Positions 4,632 to 37,535 of a stretch of 50,831 nt of DNA are shown here, one piece after another. The notes beneath the pieces were generated by a model. It was given only the letters and a program-made list of their open reading frames with translations, was not told where the DNA came from and did not search any database. The translations under genes were made by a program, and so were the position numbers. The DNA comes from a virus: the IMG/VR virus record IMGVR_UViG_3300034109_000852, positions 1 through 50,831 of that record, one strand, 5' to 3'. Every line of letters starts with the position of its first letter. Positions within the stretch are counted from its first letter, which is position 1.

Positions 4632-4907
4632 CTACAGGTCCGCGTCTTCCAGATCGTCGTCGTCGCAAAGCAACTCCAGAACCCGATCAAGCTTCATGTC
4701 GATCTGCTCGACAGTCTCAAAGAGCGTCGGCTGCGCCTTCGCCTCGTTGCGGACGTGATCGACATACGCCCAGCCGTCGGCCTTCCGAACGAACCACTTG
4801 TCGTCCTGAATCGAGAAGTAGCCGTTGATGGCTCCGTCTTCGATGCCTTGCTTGACCGTTGACGACCACGCATTGAACGTGTCTATGGATACGATTTCAC
4901 TCGTCAC
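4632..4907 (-). CDS. Hypothetical acidic protein
   Basis: A 91-residue protein whose start is chosen as GTG 4907. It forms a GTGA overlap with the protease stop and sits 7-8 nt after AGGAGG. The middle has aromatic-rich strands (GYFSIQDDKWFVRKADGWAYV) and the tail is a helix ending in a run of aspartates (LLCDDDDLEDADL). Function unknown. Confidence 0.7.
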   Translation of the reverse strand: MTSEIVSIDTFNAWSSTVKQGIEDGAINGYFSIQDDKWFVRKADGWAYVDHVRNEAKAQPTLFETVEQIDMKLDRVLELLCDDDDLEDADL

Positions 4908-5623
4908 TTGATGACCTCCTGAATCCATGCTGCGTACTCGCTCACGTCGGTGTGGCCGCTCTCCTCGCCCTCGCGGCTCAGGAGCGGCCCTTTGTCTCGC
5001 ATGGTCAGGCTGTTGATCCCAGCCAGTTCGCCGTTCGCGAACAGCGGGCCGCCCGAATCGCCTGGGGCAATGCAGAACTCCATCGGGCTCGACCGCCGTC
5101 TGGCATCGCAGATCATCATGTGGCGCTCGTATCGCACGATCGTGTTCGTCCCTGCCCGCAACAGACCGTCATGCTCGCCGTGGCCGCCAGACAGCCGGCC
5201 CGTCACTCCGTAGCCGGCAATGCTCACCGTCTGGCCCACGTTATGCCGTGTTTTAGCCAACGGCGGATAGAAATCCAGACCAAAACTTCTTTCCGAATGG
5301 AGGAGGGCGATGTCGTGCTCGCCGAAGCGATCGTTCCACTCAGGGTGGATGACAACCCTGTCGATGGCGTGGTCGTTCACGACGATGCCATCGACCGCGT
5401 GAACCACATGGGCAGCCGTGATTGCCCAGTGGCCGGAAATCAGCGTCGCCGTGGCTATATGCTGCCGTCCGTCGCTGGCCGTTCCTCTCAGGCGGGCCGT
5501 ATACGGCCTGAAGCCGTCGGCGTAGGCGATGTAGGCCGAGTCTGGCACAGAATCGTCCGTAGTGCCTGCGTCGGCTGGGCCGACGAGCGAAGCCATCACG
5601 GCGGCGGCAGCGAGATTCTTCAT
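4904..5623 (-). CDS. Secreted trypsin-like serine protease
   Basis: A 239-residue S1-family peptidase. The catalytic triad is complete: H72 in TAAHVV, D104 in EHDIALL and S190 in GDSGGP. The N-terminus MKNLAAAAVMASLVGPADA is a Sec-type signal peptide with likely cleavage after ADA, so the mature enzyme (about 220 residues) acts outside the cytoplasm. C172 and C184 may form a disulfide. Start ATG 5623 gives a clean signal peptide; an in-frame GTG lies five codons upstream. A secreted chymotrypsin-fold protease is unusual in phage. Possible roles are host-envelope attack at lysis, receptor or competitor modification, or prophage-conferred fitness. Confidence 0.9.
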   Translation of the reverse strand: MKNLAAAAVMASLVGPADAGTTDDSVPDSAYIAYADGFRPYTARLRGTASDGRQHIATATLISGHWAITAAHVVHAVDGIVVNDHAIDRVVIHPEWNDRFGEHDIALLHSERSFGLDFYPPLAKTRHNVGQTVSIAGYGVTGRLSGGHGEHDGLLRAGTNTIVRYERHMMICDARRRSSPMEFCIAPGDSGGPLFANGELAGINSLTMRDKGPLLSREGEESGHTDVSEYAAWIQEVIK

Positions 5624-5639
5624 AGCCTTGCCGTCCACC

Positions 5640-5810
5640 TCACTGGACGATCGTTCTGTAGGCGAGGGCGAGGAGAAGGGCCGTGAATGCGAGAATCATC
5701 GGAGCCGCCGCGTAGCAGACGACCTTCATCACGCTGTCGATCCGCCTCAGGTCTTCGGCGATCTCGGCGTCGAGGCGGCGGCGCTGCTGCTCGAAGTAGT
5801 CGTCGTTCAT
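5640..5810 (-). CDS. Small single-pass membrane protein
   Basis: A 56-residue protein with a charged helical N-terminus (EQQRRRLDAEIAEDLRRID) and one C-terminal transmembrane segment (MILAFTALLLALAYRTIV). Starts at ATG 5810, overlapping the previous small gene's stop (ATGA). Together with that gene it forms a pair of tiny membrane proteins just upstream of the secreted protease. Holin, spanin or release functions are possible but unproven. Confidence 0.65.
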   Translation of the reverse strand: MNDDYFEQQRRRLDAEIAEDLRRIDSVMKVVCYAAAPMILAFTALLLALAYRTIVQ

Positions 5811-5908
5811 CGCATATACCCAATTAGGGATACATAGGCGACGGCCCCGGCGAGGACGAGAATCGTCGCCACGTTGAGCCAGGTGTGCAGGAATGGGTCG
5901 ATGGTCAT
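5807..5908 (-). CDS. Tiny membrane protein (33 residues)
   Basis: A 33-residue gene, MTIDPFLHTWLNVATILVLA at its start, with one membrane segment (VATILVLAGAVAYVSLIGY). ATG at 5908; the stop overlaps the next ATG (ATGA), supporting translation coupling. It fills an otherwise empty 100-bp gap. Its size and single helix resemble pinholins or small phage membrane regulators. Confidence 0.6.
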   Translation of the reverse strand: MTIDPFLHTWLNVATILVLAGAVAYVSLIGYMR

Positions 5909-5910
5909 TG

Positions 5911-6765
5911 TTACACTCCGCACATGCCTTCGCACTCGTTGTCGAAATCCACGAACAGGCCCATCTGGCCTGTCTTTTGGCCTTCCGTTCGCAGGTCGGC
6001 GTCGCGAAGAGGGACGTATGACCTGTGGATGAACGAAATGCCTCTTGCGCCGTCTCCGCGAACGGCATCATCAACCTCGCACGCGCGGCGCCACCCGTCT
6101 GGGTCGTTCTCCTTCAAGTCGCGCCACTCTTCGTTTGTCTTGTACGGACAGAACACGCACGCAGACCTGGGCACAGGATGCGGAACCCTGTCCTTGAGGT
6201 ATGCCTTGCAGTCCCCTCGCGTCATCTCTAGGTCAAACAGGGGAAACTCAACCTTCCACTGCTTCGGCCTTGCCGAATACCGCTGCTTGACGCGTATGAC
6301 GCGACGCGGCTCGTCGAACGAAAGGCCCATGTGCTGAATGCACTCTGCATCCTTTGGAAGCGGCCTGCCAGGATCGACGCCGTATATTTCACGCCGAATC
6401 ACACGCTCAACAACATCAACCTTGAATTCCTTTGTGCATTGCCGCTGCCCGACGCCCTTGTTCTTTCCAGCCTCGTCCTGAACGTAGGCCGGAATTGACG
6501 AAAAGTACGTCCCGTCCCTTCGGCGGTTGCCGCGGTAGTCTGTGCCGGCGATCACGCAGTCGCCGAGCTTGCCGGCGGTCGCCCGAATGATCTTCGGGCC
6601 GCCAAGCGTCTCAAGCCACTCAAGGTGCCGATAGACATCCGCTGGCTCCTCCTGAGTGTCGGCGAAGATGGCGTAGTCAAACTTCTGCACCTCTCCGTCG
6701 ATAGCCATGAGGTACAGGGCCGTTGACTGGACGCCGGCGCCGAGATTGAGGATGTGGGTTTTCAT
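5911..6765 (-). CDS. PAPS reductase-like (PP-loop) family protein
   Basis: A 284-residue adenine nucleotide alpha hydrolase/PAPS-reductase-like protein. The N-terminal NLGAGVQSTAL is a variant PP-loop, FADTQEE is the acidic strand, GQRQCTKEFK matches the (R/K)xCTxxxK motif and CVFCPYK is the C-terminal CxxC pair typical of the phage group. ATG 6765 starts in an ATGA overlap. Relatives act in sulfate assimilation, tRNA or DNA thiolation and DndC-type DNA sulfur modification; the phage copies are mostly uncharacterised. No dnd partner genes are present. Confidence 0.85.
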   Translation of the reverse strand: MKTHILNLGAGVQSTALYLMAIDGEVQKFDYAIFADTQEEPADVYRHLEWLETLGGPKIIRATAGKLGDCVIAGTDYRGNRRRDGTYFSSIPAYVQDEAGKNKGVGQRQCTKEFKVDVVERVIRREIYGVDPGRPLPKDAECIQHMGLSFDEPRRVIRVKQRYSARPKQWKVEFPLFDLEMTRGDCKAYLKDRVPHPVPRSACVFCPYKTNEEWRDLKENDPDGWRRACEVDDAVRGDGARGISFIHRSYVPLRDADLRTEGQKTGQMGLFVDFDNECEGMCGV

Positions 6766-7127
6766 TGGTCGCACCTCGCCGAACTCCACTCCGTCTGGCC
6801 GCCGTGCTCGACAACCATGAACGAGTCTTGAGATATGCAGTCGCGTAGGGTTTGCCCCAAATCAGATGCCAGACGCAGAAGGTCGCTCCCGCCTGACGGA
6901 AACCGCGGGTAGTTCCTGAAGCCGATTACGAATCCGGCCTCCTCGCCGCCTCGGTAGATGTACGTCGTTGGCGTCACCGTCACGCAGCACGGCCTGCCCT
7001 TGCAAAACCGGCGGATGACCTGCTTGGCGTGCTCAATGTCTCCGGCCATGAATAGCTCGACGATGCTGGTTGGCTCCGCTTTAGAGCCGCCGCCGAGCCG
7101 CGTCGATTCTCCGTAGACGTCACTCAT
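6762..7127 (-). CDS. Hypothetical phage protein
   Basis: A 121-residue protein with ATG in an ATGA overlap. It has the central strand GFVIGFRNYPRFPSGGSDLL and a C-terminal SFMVVEHGGQTEW. Two adjacent cysteines lie in RPCCVTV. I do not recognise a family. It is translationally coupled to the PAPS-reductase-like gene. Confidence 0.75.
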   Translation of the reverse strand: MSDVYGESTRLGGGSKAEPTSIVELFMAGDIEHAKQVIRRFCKGRPCCVTVTPTTYIYRGGEEAGFVIGFRNYPRFPSGGSDLLRLASDLGQTLRDCISQDSFMVVEHGGQTEWSSARCDQ

Positions 7128-7333
7128 TTAGCACCCAGTAGCTTGCTGATCTCTTCCGTGCTGATCTGCCGCTGTTTCGGCCTCGTCGCGTCCATGTACT
7201 CGGTAAACACATGGCCCGCGAAGTACACCGCCGTCTTCGCATCCTCCGCAACGAGGCCGGCAGGATTGCCGGCCATCGCTGCGGCGATGCTGACTGTGAG
7301 TTGCCACAGACGCTCCTCGTTGTCGCGCATCAT
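7124..7333 (-). CDS. Hypothetical small protein
   Basis: A 69-residue protein. The start is ATG 7333 (an ATGATG pair), overlapping the preceding stop. The middle is alanine-rich helix (LTVSIAAAMAGN, then AEDAKTAVYFAGHVFTEYM) but polar enough to be soluble. Unrecognised. Confidence 0.7.
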   Translation of the reverse strand: MMRDNEERLWQLTVSIAAAMAGNPAGLVAEDAKTAVYFAGHVFTEYMDATRPKQRQISTEEISKLLGAK

Positions 7334-7647
7334 TCGTACCGAACGACTGCCACCCAACCACGACGCAGTGGGCACCAGGCGGTGCCGATCTCACGCACAC
7401 GCCGCTGGCCCCAGTAACACGCCCGCCGACAAGCCGCGTCGGGACTGACTGTCGAGAAGCCCAGCCCCTCGTAGCCAAAGCCGCGCCGGCCGCAGTGGAC
7501 GAACGTGTTCGTCACCGCGAGGTGATCGGCGTGCTCCTGGGCAGAGACGATGCCGACGCTCCGACGGCCGTGGACGACGACGGTCGTGTCGGCCGAGGCT
7601 ACGGCGGCAGTCAGGATAAGACACAGCGAAAGAATCATGGGACGCAT
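7330..7647 (-). CDS. Small secreted protein
   Basis: A 105-residue protein with a clear signal peptide (MRPMILSLCLILTAAVASA) and a strong AGGAG site 7 nt before ATG 7647. The mature part carries four cysteines (in HCGRR, ACRRACYW and AWCPL), pointing to two disulfides and an extracytoplasmic location. It lies directly downstream of the TatA-like gene. No family recognised. Confidence 0.75.
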   Translation of the reverse strand: MRPMILSLCLILTAAVASADTTVVVHGRRSVGIVSAQEHADHLAVTNTFVHCGRRGFGYEGLGFSTVSPDAACRRACYWGQRRVREIGTAWCPLRRGWVAVVRYE

Positions 7648-7666
7648 GGTGATGCTCCTAGAGGTT

Positions 7667-7855
7667 TCAGGCCCGAACATTCGACTCAATGGCTCGTTCG
7701 ATCTCACGGCACTCGCTCTCGACTTCGAGGAACCCACGCTTGAATTCGACGACCGACTGGCCGACACTGCGGGCGATCTTCGGGAGACGTCCTCCGAAAA
7801 GCATGACTGCGATGCTACCGATAAGACACAGTTCAAAAGTCCCGATCCCAAACAT
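7667..7855 (-). CDS. tatA: TatA/B/E-like twin-arginine translocase protein
   Basis: A 62-residue protein with the TatA layout: a short N-terminal membrane helix (FGIGTFELCLIGSIAVML), the hinge FGGRLP corresponding to the FG-x-x-LP motif, then a basic amphipathic helix (KIARSVGQSVVEFKRG) and an acidic tail. AAGGAG precedes the ATG by 7 nt. In bacteria TatA oligomers form the pore or thin the membrane for folded-protein export. TatA homologues in phage genomes are unusual. Here it follows a gene with an RR signal-like N-terminus and precedes a secreted protein. A holin-like use of the same architecture is an alternative. Confidence 0.85.
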   Translation of the reverse strand: MFGIGTFELCLIGSIAVMLFGGRLPKIARSVGQSVVEFKRGFLEVESECREIERAIESNVRA

Positions 7856-7880
7856 GACGACACTCCTTCGTTACAGGTCA

Positions 7881-8153
7881 CTAACCGATCTCGTGGACGT
7901 CCAGCGAGATTTCTTGCGGGAGCAGCAGCGCAGGCTGCGTGATTCCGTGTTCTTTCAGGTGCAGTCGCAGGTTGTCGCGAATGCTCTCCATCACCTCGCC
8001 GGAGACGCGAGTATTCACGCGAAAGACGAGCAGCGTCTTTTTCTTCTCGTCCAGAGGCACGGCCTGCGCCGCGAGCTCTTTCTCGCCGGACTTCGTATTC
8101 AGCAGAAACGGCGACGCGAAGAGTCCCTGGAGTGCGGAGCGGCGGTCGATCAC
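7881..8153 (-). CDS. Protein with twin-arginine signal-like N-terminus
   Basis: A 90-residue protein starting at GTG 8153 in a GTGA overlap with csrA. The N-terminus [17 protein letters not shown] has adjacent arginines, then a short hydrophobic stretch and an AQA site near residue 31, resembling a Tat signal peptide, although the hydrophobic core is short. The rest is a mixed alpha/beta domain ending with [13 protein letters not shown]. It is encoded between csrA and the TatA-like gene, which suggests it could be that translocase's cargo. An untargeted cytoplasmic protein is the alternative. Confidence 0.7.
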
Positions 8154-8314
8154 TTCGCCACCGCCTTCCCGAGCAACTCCTTGCGGATGATGTTCATTTC
8201 CTTCGGCGCCTGGATCGCGAGGCGAACCTGGCCGTCCACCACGCGGGTGACGACGATCTCAATGTCGTTGCCGATCAGAAGCCGCTCTCCGCGGCGTCGT
8301 GTGAGAACAAGCAT
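8150..8314 (-). CDS. csrA: CsrA-family RNA-binding translational regulator
   Basis: A 54-residue CsrA. It begins [20 protein letters not shown], matching the CsrA beta1-beta2 signature with the conserved LTRR, GE and IG positions. [11 protein letters not shown] is the beta4-beta5 and APKE region, and the C-terminal helix includes R44, the usual RNA-contacting arginine. It should dimerise and bind GGA motifs in mRNA leaders, altering translation and stability. ATG 8314 follows an ACGGAG ribosome site that itself contains an ANGGA CsrA target, so autoregulation is plausible. It has its own promoter and a long leader hairpin. Confidence 0.95.
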
Positions 8315-8338
8315 TGCTGACTCCGTTCAGCGGGTGCC

Positions 8339-8387
8339 GGTGACTGGCGGCTCAGTCAGGAAGTGACATAAAGAACCGCCAGCCACC
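8339..8387 (-). promoter_or_regulatory. 15-bp stem-loop in the csrA leader
   Basis: The arms at 8339-8353 and 8373-8387 pair over 15 positions with two G-U wobbles around a 19-nt loop. The hairpin lies between the promoter (8406-8434) and csrA, so it is part of the 5' leader. It is followed by GAACGGAG at the start codon, a potential CsrA site. There is no U-run, so a translational or stability element is more likely than a terminator. Confidence 0.6.
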
Positions 8388-8405
8388 AACGTAGTGTGTG
8401 GGCGT

Positions 8406-8434
8406 AGCCTATGCTCCGGCCGAAACGGCGTCAA
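8406..8434 (-). promoter_or_regulatory. Sigma70-like promoter of the csrA operon
   Basis: TTGACG (8429-8434), 17-bp spacer, TAGGCT (8406-8411), read leftward. It lies at the 3' end of the preceding gene and would give csrA a leader of about 85 nt. The -10 and downstream CTACGC match other promoters in the window. Confidence 0.65.
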
Positions 8435-8873
8435 GACGTTTCCGGCAGGCGTCGCGGACGGCTGGCCGCGGGTGCGATGCTGCGGCCCATTCGACGTAGT
8501 CTTTGCCACGCGGATGCGACAGAGCCTCGTCGATCGTCTGGCCCTCAAAACGCCCGTCGCGGAACACGAACTCGTCCTCCTTCGGCTTCATGTGGCCCTC
8601 GATAGCCGGCTCACGCGAGATCGTCCCGCAGAAGCAGCATTCCAGCGTCCACTCACCTCTGTAGTCGTCGATGATGTCGAGCGCCATCGCTCCACACGCC
8701 TCGTCGGCGCACGCATACACGCCGTCGGTTCTGCCGAGGATACGCGCCGCCGATTTCCCTAATATATAAGGGCTTTTTTGCGTTTTCTCGTCTGACTCAG
8801 CAGGGGGTACGACTTTTGGCCGTTTCTTGCCCTTCACCGGCTCGTCCGGCGTCACGTCGAATAGCGTACTCAT
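8409..8873 (-). CDS. Zinc-ribbon protein with ExoX-like C-terminal domain
   Basis: A 154-residue protein. CADEACG (residues about 55-61) and ECCFCGT (about 78-84) supply paired cysteines for a zinc ribbon. The C-terminal part (GRFEGQTIDEALSHPRGKDY, then VEWA) resembles the small domain found at the end of exonuclease X-like and other phage DNA-processing proteins. It sits directly after the UvrD-like helicase, so a role as a recombination or repair accessory is likely. The ATG lies 7 nt after an AAGGCT box similar to the phage -10 element, with no obvious Shine-Dalgarno. Confidence 0.7.
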   Translation of the reverse strand: MSTLFDVTPDEPVKGKKRPKVVPPAESDEKTQKSPYILGKSAARILGRTDGVYACADEACGAMALDIIDDYRGEWTLECCFCGTISREPAIEGHMKPKEDEFVFRDGRFEGQTIDEALSHPRGKDYVEWAAASHPRPAVRDACRKRLDAVSAGA

Positions 8874-10580: not shown

Positions 10581-10721
10581 GGACGGTTGGACGGTCTGTT
10601 AAGATAGGTAAACCGTCCACCCTAAAGCCTTGCAATCAAACAGCTTGCGCTTCGTGGACGGTGGACGGTGAGTGATTTTGGTAAATCGCTTCACCCCCAT
10701 CGGCATCCCCCTTTACCGTCC
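10581..10721. repeat. Six-copy GGACGGT iteron-like cluster
   Basis: GGACGGT occurs at 10581, 10589, 10656 and 10663, and its complement ACCGTCC at 10612 and 10715, six copies in 141 bp. The 10581/10612 pair also forms an inverted repeat. The block straddles the primase-polymerase 3' end and the gap before the helicase. Such arrays are typical of initiator binding (origin iterons) or operators. Confidence 0.6.
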
Positions 10722-12429
10722 AATCGCCGTCATCGCCGGCCGAGAGCCGCTCTAGGGCAGCCAGCCACTCGCGGGTGAACACAACGTATTCCAGTCGCCC
10801 GCTCTCAAAGCGGTGCCTGCGGTGGTCGAAGTCTCGCTGCCCCATGATCTCTAGGAGCTTCGCCCGAACGCGATTCCGCTCCCCAGGAACAACGTCGTGG
10901 CTCCGGCCAATGTCCTCCCAGATTTTGCCCCACTGGAGCCAGAGTTCGTCCGGCGTGACCCAGCACGGCCTCCCAGACTCGTTCGGCTCTGGGTTGTCCT
11001 CGCTCTTCGGCGTCGTGGCCTTCTTGATGACCTGAAGGACGTAGCCGGCCAACTGGGCATATCGCAGGCTCGACGTGCCGACCGCGATGTCGTCCTCCTC
11101 TCGCTTGCGGGCCATCAGCAGTTCCATGAGGCCAGGTACGGCTTGGAACCCGTTCGCCTTGCAGGCATCGTGCCCCTTCCAGATTTTCTGCCACCGGCCG
11201 GCATCGCCGTCGAGGATGTAAGCCCGTGTGGCAGTGAACACGGCCGCCGCCACCTTCGGGGCTGACCTGAACGTGTCGAACGTCATGTGGATGCGACCGC
11301 GGCACGGGGTCGCCTCCCAGAGCGGGACGCACAGAACGATTTCTGGCGGGTCGGAGTGGATCATCTCGATCCGCCAGTCGCCAGGCTCGTATGCCTCTGT
11401 CTTCCCGACCGTCACCTTCTTCAGCCCGTACAGTTCAAACCCGCTGCCAGGTGGCGGCTTCTTCTTGCCGTCTTCGGCGGCCGCGATATTGTCGAGCTCA
11501 CGCTCAACGGCAGACTCTTCGGCGTCAGCGTCAGCCGGCGACCATCCCGTCTCCTTCCGCCTTCGGTAGTGTTCGAGGCAGTCTGCGATGATCTGACGGA
11601 CGTGCTTCTCGTCGGCTGGCGGCTGGCAGTTCTCCTTATTGAGCAGCAGGATTTCACGGGTCGTGATTTCCTGCATGGTACGATCGAGTGGATTACGCTG
11701 GTTCACGATTTTGAACCATGACCATCGCAGGATCGCGCGGTGCCGGTGGCCGTCTGGTATCTTCCCAAACAGCATTGTCGAAGCCGGCTTCTCGTCCGGC
11801 TTGCCGGCAGACCGTCCGGCGCCGTTTGAGAGCGCGACCAGAAGCGCCTTCGGCGTCCTCGCGATCTCGACATCGTCGAGCGAGAACCCAGGCTTCCACG
11901 AATACTGAACGCCAGAGCGGTGCCATGACGGCGGCAGTACGCTCTGAATCGACGCCTCTCCGGCTCCCATGCGGACCTCAAGGCCGCCTGGTGAGGCGGT
12001 CCCTTTGCATTCGGACAGGCAGTCATCCCACCGCGTCAACTGGTGCGTCGATTTTCCGCTCGTCCACGTCGGCGTTTCGAGGTCGTCCATGCCGATCGAC
12101 TTGCGGAACTGCCTCGCGGCCTCGTCGTCGTCCTCGCTGTCGATCATCCCGCCTTTCGGCCCGAGCAGGCAGCCGACGTTGAACGGGATGCCGTCTTCCA
12201 GCCACTCAAGGATGTCATCCTCAGTCTGCGCAACACGAGACGCCCAGTCATCCCCGACCGGATGCTTCCCGCAGTTGCGTTCGCCAGACTTCCCGATGGC
12301 GTGATCCTTCCGGCCGCATGTACACCGGCCGTCCGGCCAGATGCCGTGAACGCGAACGAGGATCAAGCCTTTTGATAGGTAGAGCGCGCATGCCTTGAAC
12401 ATGGCGTCTGGGTCGAATTCAAATGCCAT
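10636..12429 (-). CDS. Bifunctional DNA primase/polymerase-type protein
   Basis: A 597-residue protein. The N-terminal 200 residues follow the phage Prim-Pol layout: a cysteine-bearing insertion (CTCGRKDHAIG ... CGKHP), NVGCLLGPKGGMID with nearby acidic residues, TSGKSTHQL, then GLEVRMGAGEASIQSVLPPS and a following histidine. It probably makes primers and may extend them. The C-terminal 350 residues have no Walker motif, so it lacks the fused helicase seen in many relatives and may recruit one in trans. The separate UvrD- and SNF2-like genes flank it in the same transcription unit. Confidence 0.85.
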   Translation of the reverse strand: MAFEFDPDAMFKACALYLSKGLILVRVHGIWPDGRCTCGRKDHAIGKSGERNCGKHPVGDDWASRVAQTEDDILEWLEDGIPFNVGCLLGPKGGMIDSEDDDEAARQFRKSIGMDDLETPTWTSGKSTHQLTRWDDCLSECKGTASPGGLEVRMGAGEASIQSVLPPSWHRSGVQYSWKPGFSLDDVEIARTPKALLVALSNGAGRSAGKPDEKPASTMLFGKIPDGHRHRAILRWSWFKIVNQRNPLDRTMQEITTREILLLNKENCQPPADEKHVRQIIADCLEHYRRRKETGWSPADADAEESAVERELDNIAAAEDGKKKPPPGSGFELYGLKKVTVGKTEAYEPGDWRIEMIHSDPPEIVLCVPLWEATPCRGRIHMTFDTFRSAPKVAAAVFTATRAYILDGDAGRWQKIWKGHDACKANGFQAVPGLMELLMARKREEDDIAVGTSSLRYAQLAGYVLQVIKKATTPKSEDNPEPNESGRPCWVTPDELWLQWGKIWEDIGRSHDVVPGERNRVRAKLLEIMGQRDFDHRRHRFESGRLEYVVFTREWLAALERLSAGDDGDWTVKGDADGGEAIYQNHSPSTVHEAQAV

Positions 12430-16960: not shown

Positions 16961-17815
16961 ATGACGCTCACCGAGTTGCTCGTCGATCAGTATGCTCCGC
17001 TAAAGGGGATCGAGGACCGCACGGTCACGATCTACGGCTTCACTATTTCTAAGTGGGCCGAGTTTCTCGGTCGCCAGCCGACGGTCGAGAACGACCTCTG
17101 CGACGAGCTCGCGATCGCGAAGTTCCTGGCCCACAGGCTACGTACCCGCTCCGTTGGGACGGCCGCAAAGGATCGCTGCCAGATTCACGCATTGGCAACC
17201 TTTGCTTTCCAAAAGGGTCTTACGAGGGTCTGCCCGCAGATGCGGCCGATCCGCGTGCCTGAGAGGGTGCCGCAGGCGTGGCTGACAGATGAGTTCAAGC
17301 GGCTGCTCTCGGCGTGCGACGGCGAGGAGGGGCAGATCGTCGGCGTGTCGGCGCGGCTGTGGTGGAGAGCCGCGCTGCTGACCTGCTACGAGATTGGTGA
17401 ACGCATCGGCGGCATCCTCGGCATCGAGTGGGGTGACGTCACGCCGCAGGGCATCATCGTCCGCGCCGAGGAGCGGAAGGGAAAGAGGCGCGACATCTAC
17501 CGGACGATCTCGCCTGAGTGCCACGCCGCAATCGAGGCTATCCGCACCGACCGCCGGCTGGTGTTCGACTGGGATCGGGCCTACAGCACGATCTGGGGAA
17601 AGCTCGGCAAGATTTGCGAGCGTGCTGGCCTGCCGAATGATCGGTGCAGCAAATTCCACCGCATCCGCAAGACGACGGCCTCATACGCCGCCGCCGCCGG
17701 CCTCAGCGCTCAGGCCGTGATGGATCATGCCAGTCCGCTGACGACGAGGAAATACCTCGACCCGCGCATCGTTCAGCCGCAGGACATTCACAGCGTGCTG
17801 CCGAAAGTTAGCTGA
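16961..17815 (+). CDS. int: Tyrosine recombinase (integrase 1, plus strand)
   Basis: A 284-residue phage integrase. An N-terminal SAM-like core-binding domain (about 1-95) is followed by the catalytic domain with all expected residues: R148 (GERIGG), K173/K175, H233-x-x-R236, H256 and nucleophile Y265 (TTRKYLD). A GGGGGGAA site precedes the ATG. It should catalyse site-specific integration or excision. Its stop overlaps the end of a second, convergent recombinase by 8 bp, an unusual arrangement. Confidence 0.95.
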   Translation: MTLTELLVDQYAPLKGIEDRTVTIYGFTISKWAEFLGRQPTVENDLCDELAIAKFLAHRLRTRSVGTAAKDRCQIHALATFAFQKGLTRVCPQMRPIRVPERVPQAWLTDEFKRLLSACDGEEGQIVGVSARLWWRAALLTCYEIGERIGGILGIEWGDVTPQGIIVRAEERKGKRRDIYRTISPECHAAIEAIRTDRRLVFDWDRAYSTIWGKLGKICERAGLPNDRCSKFHRIRKTTASYAAAAGLSAQAVMDHASPLTTRKYLDPRIVQPQDIHSVLPKVS

Positions 17816-18626: not shown

Positions 18627-18789
18627 TGCTTTCGCCCTCCGTTATGGATGGGCGTAGGCTACCAGGCGCAGTGTTTTCCGCAAGCCTCCGGCTCCCGACC
18701 GCGTGCCGCGGTAGGTACGGGCAGTTCAGGCAGCCAAGGCCGCAGCAGACGCCGCGGGCGGCAAGCCGCTCTGCGGTGAATGCGGTCAC
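18559..18789 (-). CDS. Small cysteine-motif protein (CCGxGCxNCPY type)
   Basis: A 76-residue frame starting at GTG 18789 in a GTGA overlap with the HNH gene. Its RGVCCGLGCLNCPYLPR segment matches the short CCGxGCxxCPY proteins (DUF5522-like), probably metal-binding. The remainder is low-complexity and runs 68 bp into the integrase gene, so the tail may be degenerate. Real by coupling and motif, but the C-terminus is doubtful. Confidence 0.5.
   Translation of the reverse strand: MTAFTAERLAARGVCCGLGCLNCPYLPRHAVGSRRLAENTAPGSLRPSITEGESNDADFYADRQEIPRREGRIEGP
18656..18683 (-). promoter_or_regulatory. Promoter upstream of integrase 2
   Basis: TTGCGG (18678-18683), 16-bp spacer, TAGCCT (18656-18661), followed by ACGCC as in the csrA promoter. 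It would give the minus-strand integrase its own transcript with a leader of about 25 nt carrying GGAGGG. Confidence 0.55.
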
Positions 18790-19100
18790 TTTCGCCGCAC
18801 TTCCGCCGATCGCAGCGTATCGGCGAGGCGGCGAACGTCAGGCCGCCACGCCTCCCAGTCGCAGGCGTGTCCGACGACGTGGTGGCACGGCCGGCAGAGG
18901 GTGATGAGGCCGCTCGGCGGCGGCAATTCCGGCCCGCCGGCGTGGACGGGCAGGATGTGATGCACTTCGAGGTCTTTCGCCACGCCGCAGGCTTGGCAGA
19001 AAGGCTCTCGGCGAACGTGGGCGTCGCGCCATGCCTTCCAGCGGCCCGATCGGGCGGCGCCGTAGAGGTCTGAAGCAGCCTTTCGCAGCCAGCCGAACAT
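18786..19100 (-). CDS. HNH endonuclease
   Basis: A 104-residue HNH nuclease. CQACG and CRPCH give the zinc cysteines, and LEVHHILPVHAGG carries the HH catalytic pair. LITLC is the conserved central segment. AAGGAGG stands 8 nt before ATG. It would nick or cleave double-stranded DNA; in phages such proteins act in packaging, homing or host DNA degradation. It lies far from the terminase, so a packaging role is less certain. Confidence 0.92.
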   Translation of the reverse strand: MFGWLRKAASDLYGAARSGRWKAWRDAHVRREPFCQACGVAKDLEVHHILPVHAGGPELPPPSGLITLCRPCHHVVGHACDWEAWRPDVRRLADTLRSAEVRRK

Positions 19101-23743: not shown

Positions 23744-23998
23744 TTACGGCTGCTCGTCTTTCGCCTTCTCGCCAGCCCTCGGCTGGAGGGCGTATAGCAG
23801 CTTCGTCTGCTCCTTCACCGCCTCGGCGATCTCTTTCTGGCTCTGGGCCACGGTCTGGAGGAATGCGGAGTGCTGCTCGACGAGCGGTAGCAGGATGTCA
23901 GACCTGAGCATCCATCCAAAAAAGATGGCGACCAGGGTAGGAAAACCCCACCGCTCTAATACCGTCTTCAGCGTGTCGCCCATTTCCTGCCCGCTCAT
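23744..23998 (-). CDS. Holin-like membrane protein
   Basis: An 84-residue protein with one membrane segment (FPTLVAIFFGWMLRSDILLPL) after a short N-terminus, then a long charged helix (LQTVAQSQKEIAEAVKEQTK). A single helix plus basic/acidic coiled tail is the layout of several small phage holins and of BhlA-like proteins. ATG 23998 overlaps the preceding stop (ATGA). Best available lysis candidate in the late block, though no endolysin is adjacent. Confidence 0.6.
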   Translation of the reverse strand: MSGQEMGDTLKTVLERWGFPTLVAIFFGWMLRSDILLPLVEQHSAFLQTVAQSQKEIAEAVKEQTKLLYALQPRAGEKAKDEQP

Positions 23999-24351
23999 GT
24001 CTTGAGCATCACCACGCAAACGGCCGCCGTGCTGTTCGTCGTCGCGCTGACGATCTTGATCGCGCCGCAGCCGTAGGTTTCGTCGGGCAGCGGGTAGACG
24101 CCGCCCGTCACGGTCGATGGCGACAGGGTGATGTCGGCCACGCTGCCGTCGATCTTGCGGAGCCGGTAGAACGGCCCAGTCGTGGCGTCAGACGCCCAGA
24201 TTTGGAGCGTTGTGGCGGCCGTCGAGACGGTGCCGATCTCCAGGGCACCGCCGGCAACATCGTCCCATCGCAGCGTCGTGGCTACGGCTGTCGAGGTGGA
24301 CAGCGTGATCGGGACGGCCTTGAACTTGCGGCGAATCTTTGGCTCGGACAT
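23995..24351 (-). CDS. Virion-associated beta-rich protein
   Basis: A 118-residue, serine/threonine-rich beta protein (STSTAVATTLRW, ATTLQIWASD) with GGAGGTG 7 nt before ATG. Composition matches small capsid decoration or tail proteins elsewhere in the block. Likely structural; no family recognised. Confidence 0.65.
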   Translation of the reverse strand: MSEPKIRRKFKAVPITLSTSTAVATTLRWDDVAGGALEIGTVSTAATTLQIWASDATTGPFYRLRKIDGSVADITLSPSTVTGGVYPLPDETYGCGAIKIVSATTNSTAAVCVVMLKT

Positions 24352-37199: not shown

Positions 37200-37535
37200 T
37201 TACGCGACTCGGAAGGTCGCGCTCCCAGAGATGAGGGCACCGACAGAACCGCCGATCGAGGCGTTCGCGAGCGTCCCGTTGCCACTGAAGCTGATCGGGC
37301 CGGCGATACTGAGCGTGCCGGACGTGCCAGCGGTGAGGATGACGTTCGAGATGTAGTCGATCGTGACCTCGCGGTCGGTCGCAAAGCCGCCGACGTACTC
37401 CCGGCGGCCGTTCGGGGCGATGCCGAGGTGCGAGCCGTCGATGAGGTCTTGCGTGTCATTGACCTGTACGGAGGTGACGGTGAGCGTCGAGCCAGCGAAG
37501 GTAAAAGTCAGTCCCTGGGACGAAATGCCAGCCAT
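37200..37535 (-). CDS. Major tail tube-like protein B (paralogue)
   Basis: A 111-residue protein with the same start pattern (MAGISSQGLTFTFAGSTLTV) and end (GSVGALISGSATFRVA) as the neighbouring tube-like protein. GGAGG precedes the ATG. Either gene could be the major tail protein; the pair may give a two-subunit tube or one decoration protein. Which dominates cannot be told from sequence. Confidence 0.7.
   Translation of the reverse strand: MAGISSQGLTFTFAGSTLTVTSVQVNDTQDLIDGSHLGIAPNGRREYVGGFATDREVTIDYISNVILTAGTSGTLSIAGPISFSGNGTLANASIGGSVGALISGSATFRVA

What the first reader, a model, noticed from the sequence alone, without database searches (positions are those of the whole stretch)
7330..8434. 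Phage operon linking csrA, an RR-signal protein, a TatA-like protein and a secreted protein
Seen: four genes in one tightly spaced unit behind a single promoter (8406-8434), encoding CsrA, a protein with a twin-arginine signal-like start ([13 protein letters not shown]), a 62-residue TatA-like protein with FGGRLP, and a signal-peptide protein. Known: CsrA is a global post-transcriptional regulator and TatA forms part of the folded-protein export system. Inference: the phage reprograms host translation and exports a folded cargo, or uses a TatA-like helix as a membrane lesion at release. I know of no described phage system of this composition.
Basis: partly seen in the sequence, partly recalled or inferred. 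Interest (0 to 1): 0.85.

Follow-up and report, generated by a model that had tools for sequence, protein, structure and literature searches.

The report
Phage operon with its own TatA
A group of little-known bacterial viruses carries, in one operon, a self-regulating RNA-binding protein (CsrA), a genuine component of the bacterial machine that exports folded proteins (TatA), and small proteins bearing the matching twin-arginine export tag, which suggests that the virus helps the host's Tat exporter ship viral proteins out of the cytoplasm.

Summary
On the minus strand, csrA (8314-8150), a twin-arginine (RR) protein (8153-7881), a 62-residue TatA (7855-7667) and a Sec-signal protein (7647-7330) are tightly packed. 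The TatA is real: it passes the Pfam cut-off, keeps E8 and the F20-G21 hinge, is modelled as two helices, and matches solved TatA by sequence. It recurs in 12 IMG/VR contigs (10 distinct phages) at 66-82% identity, always downstream of csrA, as one clade apart from bacterial TatA. No contig encodes TatC. In 9 of 10 phages the gene just before tatA starts with a twin-arginine signal; the RR pair is invariant among RR proteins only ~28% identical. CsrA is core to a wider phage clade; its Shine-Dalgarno sits in a strongly covarying ANGGA-loop hairpin, so it very probably represses itself. The claimed promoter was not found. Best reading: phage TatA joins host TatC to export phage Tat substrates under CsrA-autoregulated translation. 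A TatA lesion or host-Tat interference is less likely but not excluded. Export, cargo function and host (perhaps Planctomycetota) are untested. Co-occurrence of TatA with Tat signals is significant by contig but not after phylogenetic correction.

The parts
8409..8873 (-). 154-aa conserved upstream gene, no family at cut-off, between helicase and csrA in the related contigs
   Evidence: ORF; orthologues at 32-47% in all 9 related contigs compared
8336..8391 (-). long GC-rich hairpin in the csrA leader (18-bp outer stem)
   Evidence: RNA fold of 8296-8408, -42.8 kcal/mol, z -3.2
8316..8331 (-). GCUGA-ACGGAG-UCAGC hairpin on the csrA Shine-Dalgarno; ANGGA hexaloop = predicted CsrA-binding site (autoregulation)
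   Evidence: 44 of 60 distinct leaders against 7% of shuffles; covariation score 0.519 against shuffled 0.165 (sd 0.026) and slid versions at most 0.163
8150..8314 (-). csrA, 54 aa
   Evidence: PF02599 9e-21; R6, R7 and R44 invariant in the alignment of four phage CsrA
7881..8153 (-). RR protein, 90 aa, twin-arginine signal-like start ([18 protein letters not shown]) plus a small predicted alpha/beta domain; proposed Tat substrate
   Evidence: six orthologues, RR invariant at 26-31% identity to the window protein; not found in any TatA-less locus
7667..7855 (-). tatA, 62 aa, TatA of the Tat translocase
   Evidence: PF02416 above cut-off; PDB TatA/TatB matches; AlphaFold two-helix model
7330..7647 (-). 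105-aa secreted protein with a Sec-type signal, Cys-containing
   Evidence: ORF; 84% identical orthologue in G001, 35-47% in G005, G007 and G010
7124..7330 (-). 68-aa downstream gene of unknown function
   Evidence: ORF
5807..5908 (-). 33-aa single-TM protein conserved downstream of tatA
   Evidence: 33-73% identical orthologues in five related contigs

Best explanation
A temperate-type siphophage group carries an accessory Tat-export module behind its core csrA gene. The phage makes its own TatA, which oligomerises on the host TatC (no TatC is encoded by the phages found) and raises or redirects Tat transport of phage proteins that carry twin-arginine signals, here the 90-aa RR protein made from the gene just before tatA. 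CsrA binds the ANGGA hairpin on its own Shine-Dalgarno and so limits translation of csrA and, through the 4-bp stop/start overlap, of the next gene; this would time or dose the module. Shown by sequence: TatA identity, lone TatA, conserved gene order, RR invariance, covarying CsrA-type hairpin. Inferred: TatA-TatC pairing, actual export, CsrA binding, coupling, and what the exported protein does (perhaps cell-envelope modification or exclusion of competing phages).
For: TatA is above the Pfam cut-off, with invariant E8, F20-G21, L24-P25 and F38-K39 in 10 phages; best PDB match chloroplast TatA 7b7o, E 1.9e-8; model H4-20/H23-61. TatA is 66-82% conserved where CsrA is 37-66% and the RR protein about 25-32%, which suits a protein bound to a conserved host partner. 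Phage TatA is one clade (99/99) against 46 bacterial TatA rows, so it is long resident. csrA-tatA co-occurrence is 12 of 12 contigs; TatC 0 of 12. The gene directly upstream of tatA has a twin-arginine signal in 9 of 10 phages. RR is invariant in the six-member family, and that family is absent from all 81 TatA-less loci. TatA+ contigs have a Tat-signal gene in 9 of 9, TatA- in 10 of 33 (Fisher 2e-4). csrA leader hairpin; 4-bp overlap with the next gene in 9 of 10 phages.
Against: The window's own RR signal is not recognised by the TAT_signal_seq model, and the first hydrophobic position of the motif (RR-x-[hydrophobic]) is only Ala. The NCBIfam tatAE score is below its curated cut-off (38 against 53.9). 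The tree-corrected TatA/Tat-signal association is not significant (3.6 of 5 pairs in the same direction, 0 opposite, p 0.125), and one close TatA-less relative, L135, also carries a Tat-signal protein, so TatA is not strictly required. The RR-protein model is poor (pLDDT 53). The Foldseek match to E. coli TatA is not significant. The host is unknown.
Confidence: 0.58

Rival explanations
1. The phage TatA is a lysis or membrane-weakening factor: a short-TM plus amphipathic-helix protein used like a small holin, possibly triggered by binding the RR protein.
For: TatA and the small holin TpeE share size and topology, and TatA locally weakens membranes (review PMC9527704). No holin or endolysin was identified in the window.
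Against: The review stresses that TpeE lacks the residues essential to TatA, whereas the phage protein keeps them. tatA lies in a csrA accessory region beside Tat-signal genes, far from the structural genes; a separate short TM protein (23744-23998) next to tail-region genes is a better holin candidate. Most relatives lack tatA yet must lyse.
Confidence: 0.13
2. The phage TatA interferes with the host Tat system, competing for TatC to block or divert host Tat export, with the RR protein as a decoy substrate.
For: Lone TatA with no TatC; RR proteins beside it; many Planctomycetota, a possible host phylum, have one or two TatA genes of their own (135 of 149 genomes).
Against: All functional TatA positions are conserved, with no sign of a dominant-negative change; Tat-signal proteins next to tatA belong to several unrelated families, which looks like cargo more than one decoy.
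Confidence: 0.14
3. Chance packing of a host-derived auxiliary tatA with an unrelated small membrane-anchored protein; the RR is an N-terminal positive patch and no export is involved.
For: No curated Tat-signal model matches the window's RR protein; the tree-corrected association is weak.
Against: RR is invariant across six divergent orthologues; two Tat-signal proteins of tatA-bearing phages (in L008 and L026) pass the TAT_signal_seq cut-off; strong local enrichment; TatA monophyly shows long retention.
Confidence: 0.1

Closest known systems
TatA of the twin-arginine translocase (PF02416; TIGR01411)
   Same: Short TM helix with polar residue E8, FG hinge, amphipathic helix, acidic stretch after it
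   Different: Encoded by a phage, 62 aa without the long tail, phage-specific conserved E48-C49, no TatB or TatC nearby, next to csrA
CsrA/RsmA global post-transcriptional regulator (PF02599); csrA in phages (30 of 2517 phage genomes, PMC7366521)
   Same: CsrA family, RNA-binding arginines kept, ANGGA hairpin on its own Shine-Dalgarno as in autoregulated csrA/rsmA
   Different: Core gene of an uncultured phage clade, here leading an operon with tatA; hairpin conserved by compensatory changes across the clade
Twin-arginine signal proteins (TIGR01409)
   Same: RR-x-hydrophobic motif near the start followed by a weakly hydrophobic stretch
   Different: Phage-encoded, small, no known enzymatic domain; the window's own copy does not pass the model
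TpeE/BhlA small holins (PMC9527704)
   Same: One TM helix followed by an amphipathic helix, similar size
   Different: No sequence relation; these holins lack the residues essential to TatA, which this protein keeps

Membership tests
TatA (Tat translocase) | Match to PF02416 above the gathering score | tested here: met
   33.6 bits against 21, E 2.3e-8
TatA (Tat translocase) | Match to NCBIfam tatAE TIGR01411 above its cut-off | tested here: not met
   38 bits against 53.9, E 8.7e-10; a divergent member by this model
TatA (Tat translocase) | Polar residue before the TM helix, FG hinge, amphipathic helix | tested here: met
   E8, F20-G21, F38-K39 invariant in 10 phages; helices 4-20 and 23-61
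TatA (Tat translocase) | L-shaped fold matching solved TatA | tested here: inconclusive
   The only Foldseek hits in PDB are E. coli TatA 2mn7 and 2lzr, but E 2.0 and 4.6
TatA (Tat translocase) | Works with TatC to export folded proteins | not testable with these tools
   No TatC in the 12 records; needs complementation
Tat substrate (RR protein) | Twin arginine in the signal, conserved in orthologues | tested here: met
   RR invariant in 6 of 6
Tat substrate (RR protein) | Match to TAT_signal_seq TIGR01409 | tested here: not met
   No match for the window protein; met by proteins in L008, L026 and L135
CsrA | Match to PF02599 above cut-off | tested here: met
   74 bits against 27
CsrA | Match to NCBIfam csrA equivalog models above cut-off | tested here: not met
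   63.9 against 73 and 58.4 against 70.1; the protein is only 54 aa
CsrA | RNA-binding residues (R6, R44) and an ANGGA hairpin target | tested here: met
   R6 and R44 invariant; covarying hairpin
Small holin | Holin family match or linkage to endolysin | tested here: not met
   tatA matches no holin family; no endolysin found beside it

The most novel reading that the evidence does not exclude
These phages run a dedicated branch of the host Tat pathway: phage TatA plus swappable phage Tat cargo, dosed by an autoregulated phage CsrA, to place folded phage proteins outside the cytoplasm. One cargo, in L008, resembles part of the phage's own HK97 capsid protein, which could act as an exclusion or decoy factor in the envelope.
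Probability: 0.3. Interest if true: 0.87.

Novelty: new variant of a known kind. Interest (0 to 1): 0.72.

Why it matters
No phage-encoded TatA with its own Tat substrates turned up in the phage records or papers searched. If it works as proposed, phages use the folded-protein exporter deliberately, which opens a route by which they can remodel the host envelope. It also gives a natural minimal TatA (62 aa) beside defined small cargo, useful for the open question of how TatA and substrate act together. Separately, the csrA leader hairpin, supported by compensatory changes across many phages, makes phage self-regulation through CsrA directly testable.

Tried and rejected
1) Promoter at 8406-8434: no sigma-70-like site found. 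2) Close relatives among annotated phages: none by DNA or by TatA protein. E. coli TatA hits in the phage collection are host-like contigs: Salmonella records annotated as tatE, two short unannotated records, and large contigs filed as an Acinetobacter phage. 3) RR protein alone found no relatives in viral contigs; they were found by neighbourhood. 4) Host: terminase relatives in Planctomycetota are only ~38% identical and those prophage regions lack tatA and the RR protein, with one csrA in L192, so the host stays open. The 105-aa secreted protein and the RR family were not convincingly found in about 294 Planctomycetota genomes. 5) My first Tat-signal rule excluded a hydrophobic residue before RR and gave about 5 of 5 tree pairs; comparing L135 with L136 showed it missed a real signal, and the relaxed rule gives a non-significant 3.6 of 5. 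The earlier figure is withdrawn. 6) RR-protein structure too uncertain for a fold search.

Full report
Context. The window is an IMG/VR virus record of 50,831 bp, 62% GC. It is a tailed phage with large terminase, portal, head protease and major capsid protein, DNA helicases and primase, and an integrase at 16961-17815, so probably temperate. Nearly all genes lie on the minus strand. No annotated phage is close by DNA (first 25 kb searched).

Observation. CsrA is unambiguous. The 62-aa protein passes the Pfam TatA_B_E cut-off in two searches. The RR protein (90 aa) begins [20 protein letters not shown] and matches no family. The 105-aa protein has a Sec-type signal. csrA and the RR gene overlap by 4 bp (GTGA), and the later gaps are about 19-25 bp. 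The promoter was not supported, and the same-strand run goes on in both directions.

TatA. Relatives were found in 11 other viral contigs at 66-82% identity. In ten distinct sequences, F2, G3, G5, E8, F20, G21, R23-L24-P25-K26, G32, E37-F38-K39 and E48-C49 are invariant. The polar residue before the helix, the FG hinge and the amphipathic helix are the features that define TatA. Profile search of PDB sequences finds chloroplast TatA (7b7o, 1.9e-8), TatB, TatA and TatAd chains. The AlphaFold model has helices 4-20 and 23-61 with mean pLDDT 78. Foldseek returned only two hits in PDB, both E. coli TatA, but without significance. NCBIfam tatAE scores below its own cut-off, so this is a divergent member. 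On a tree with 46 bacterial TatA rows the phage TatA form one clade (99/99) on a long stem; with 54 columns its sister group cannot be named. None of the 12 records encodes TatC, though some are fragments.

Neighbourhood. All 12 contigs have csrA upstream on the same strand, 0.2-2.2 kb away. The RR-protein family lies just before tatA in six phages (window, L004, L005, L007, L011, L012). In L008, L009 and L010 a different RR-signal protein stands there; in L002 csrA itself does. Among the six RR proteins, at 26-31% identity to the window copy, only M1, R4, R5 and P79 are invariant. A mechanical scan of nine contigs found Tat-type signals in 15 of 116 genes within 2.5 kb of tatA and 7 of 533 elsewhere; several of the far hits look like start-codon artefacts. 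Two of these proteins (in L008 and L026), though not the window's, pass the curated TAT_signal_seq cut-off.

Controls. A search with the upstream helicase gave 54 loci. CsrA follows the helicase in 51 of 54, and two of the three exceptions end inside the helicase, so csrA is core. tatA is present in a minority, and the RR family occurs only with tatA (0 of 81 TatA-less loci). With a relaxed rule, 9 of 9 TatA+ and 10 of 33 TatA- contigs have a Tat-signal gene (Fisher 2e-4). About six of the ten TatA- cases look real by eye, so phage Tat cargo also exists without phage TatA. On the helicase tree tatA changed at least five times. Tat signals then went the same way in 3.6 of 5 independent pairs and never the opposite way, p 0.125; this is suggestive only. 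L135 and L136 have nearly identical helicases but only L136 has tatA and the RR protein, while L135 carries another Tat-signal protein. The module is therefore mobile or easily lost.

CsrA control. The csrA start is preceded by GCUGA-ACGGAG-UCAGC at 8331-8316, an ANGGA hexaloop on the Shine-Dalgarno, the classic CsrA target (established knowledge of the family). Such a hairpin is present in 44 of 60 distinct phage csrA leaders against 7% of shuffles. On 46 sequences anchored only on the GGA (not on pairing), covariation was 0.519 against 0.165 (sd 0.026) in shuffles and at most 0.163 in slid versions; all five pairs show double changes. The same strict hairpin occurs before 5 of 73 window genes, including csrA, the primase-like gene, an HNH endonuclease gene and two genes of the structural region (23995-24351 and 37200-37535), and before 15 of 712 genes in ten phages against 4.2 expected, so a small phage regulon is possible. 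In 9 of 10 phages the gene after csrA overlaps it by 4 bp, and by 13 bp in the tenth, where that gene is tatA, which fits translational coupling.

Mechanism. The simplest account is a phage-supplied TatA acting on host TatC to export phage Tat substrates, with output limited by CsrA autoregulation. The high conservation of TatA compared with its neighbours suits a protein that must fit a conserved host partner. What the cargo does is unknown; envelope modification or exclusion of other phages are guesses. A holin-like role and interference with host Tat remain possible (see rivals).

Literature. csrA in phages was reported in 30 of 2517 genomes (PMC7366521). TatA and the holin TpeE were compared in PMC9527704, which notes that TpeE differs at the positions essential to TatA. 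Targeted searches found no paper describing phage-encoded TatA, within an open-access library only.

Noticed in passing
L008:7302-7940 (+): A Tat-signal protein directly before tatA matches Phage_capsid (PF05065, 30 bits, above cut-off) and weakly the same phage's own major capsid protein: an apparently export-tagged capsid-like fragment.
   Followed up: partly
window 10636-12429, 18786-19100, 23995-24351, 37200-37535 leaders (-): ANGGA-loop hairpins like that of csrA lie on the ribosome sites of these phage genes, a possible phage CsrA regulon; the 23995-24351 hairpin recurs in the orthologue of G011.
   Followed up: partly
window 8336-8391 (-): Long hairpin in the csrA leader; the intergenic gap here is about 94 bp against about 30 in several relatives, so it looks like an inserted palindrome. 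Partly similar 15-mers occur near 11368 and 11618.
   Followed up: partly
upstream of csrA in most loci, e.g. L050:5963-5970: TAGGCTAC recurs about 30 nt before csrA at nearly constant distance, overlapping the stop of the upstream gene in the window.
   Followed up: no
window 5807-5908 (-): A 33-aa single-TM protein is conserved downstream of tatA in several relatives.
   Followed up: no
window 23744-23998 (-): 84-aa protein with one N-terminal TM segment beside tail-region genes: candidate holin, no family match.
   Followed up: partly
window 4904-5638 (-): Secreted trypsin-like protease with a Sec signal in a phage (PF00089 1.9e-21), with a 57% identical copy in G010.
   Followed up: no
window 5911-6765 (-): PAPS-reductase-like protein (phrog_424, 2.8e-37) in the same accessory region; its orthologue lies upstream of csrA in L011.
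   Followed up: no
L192:6374-6610 (+): A csrA-like gene in a Planctomycetota prophage region whose terminase is related to the window's.
   Followed up: no
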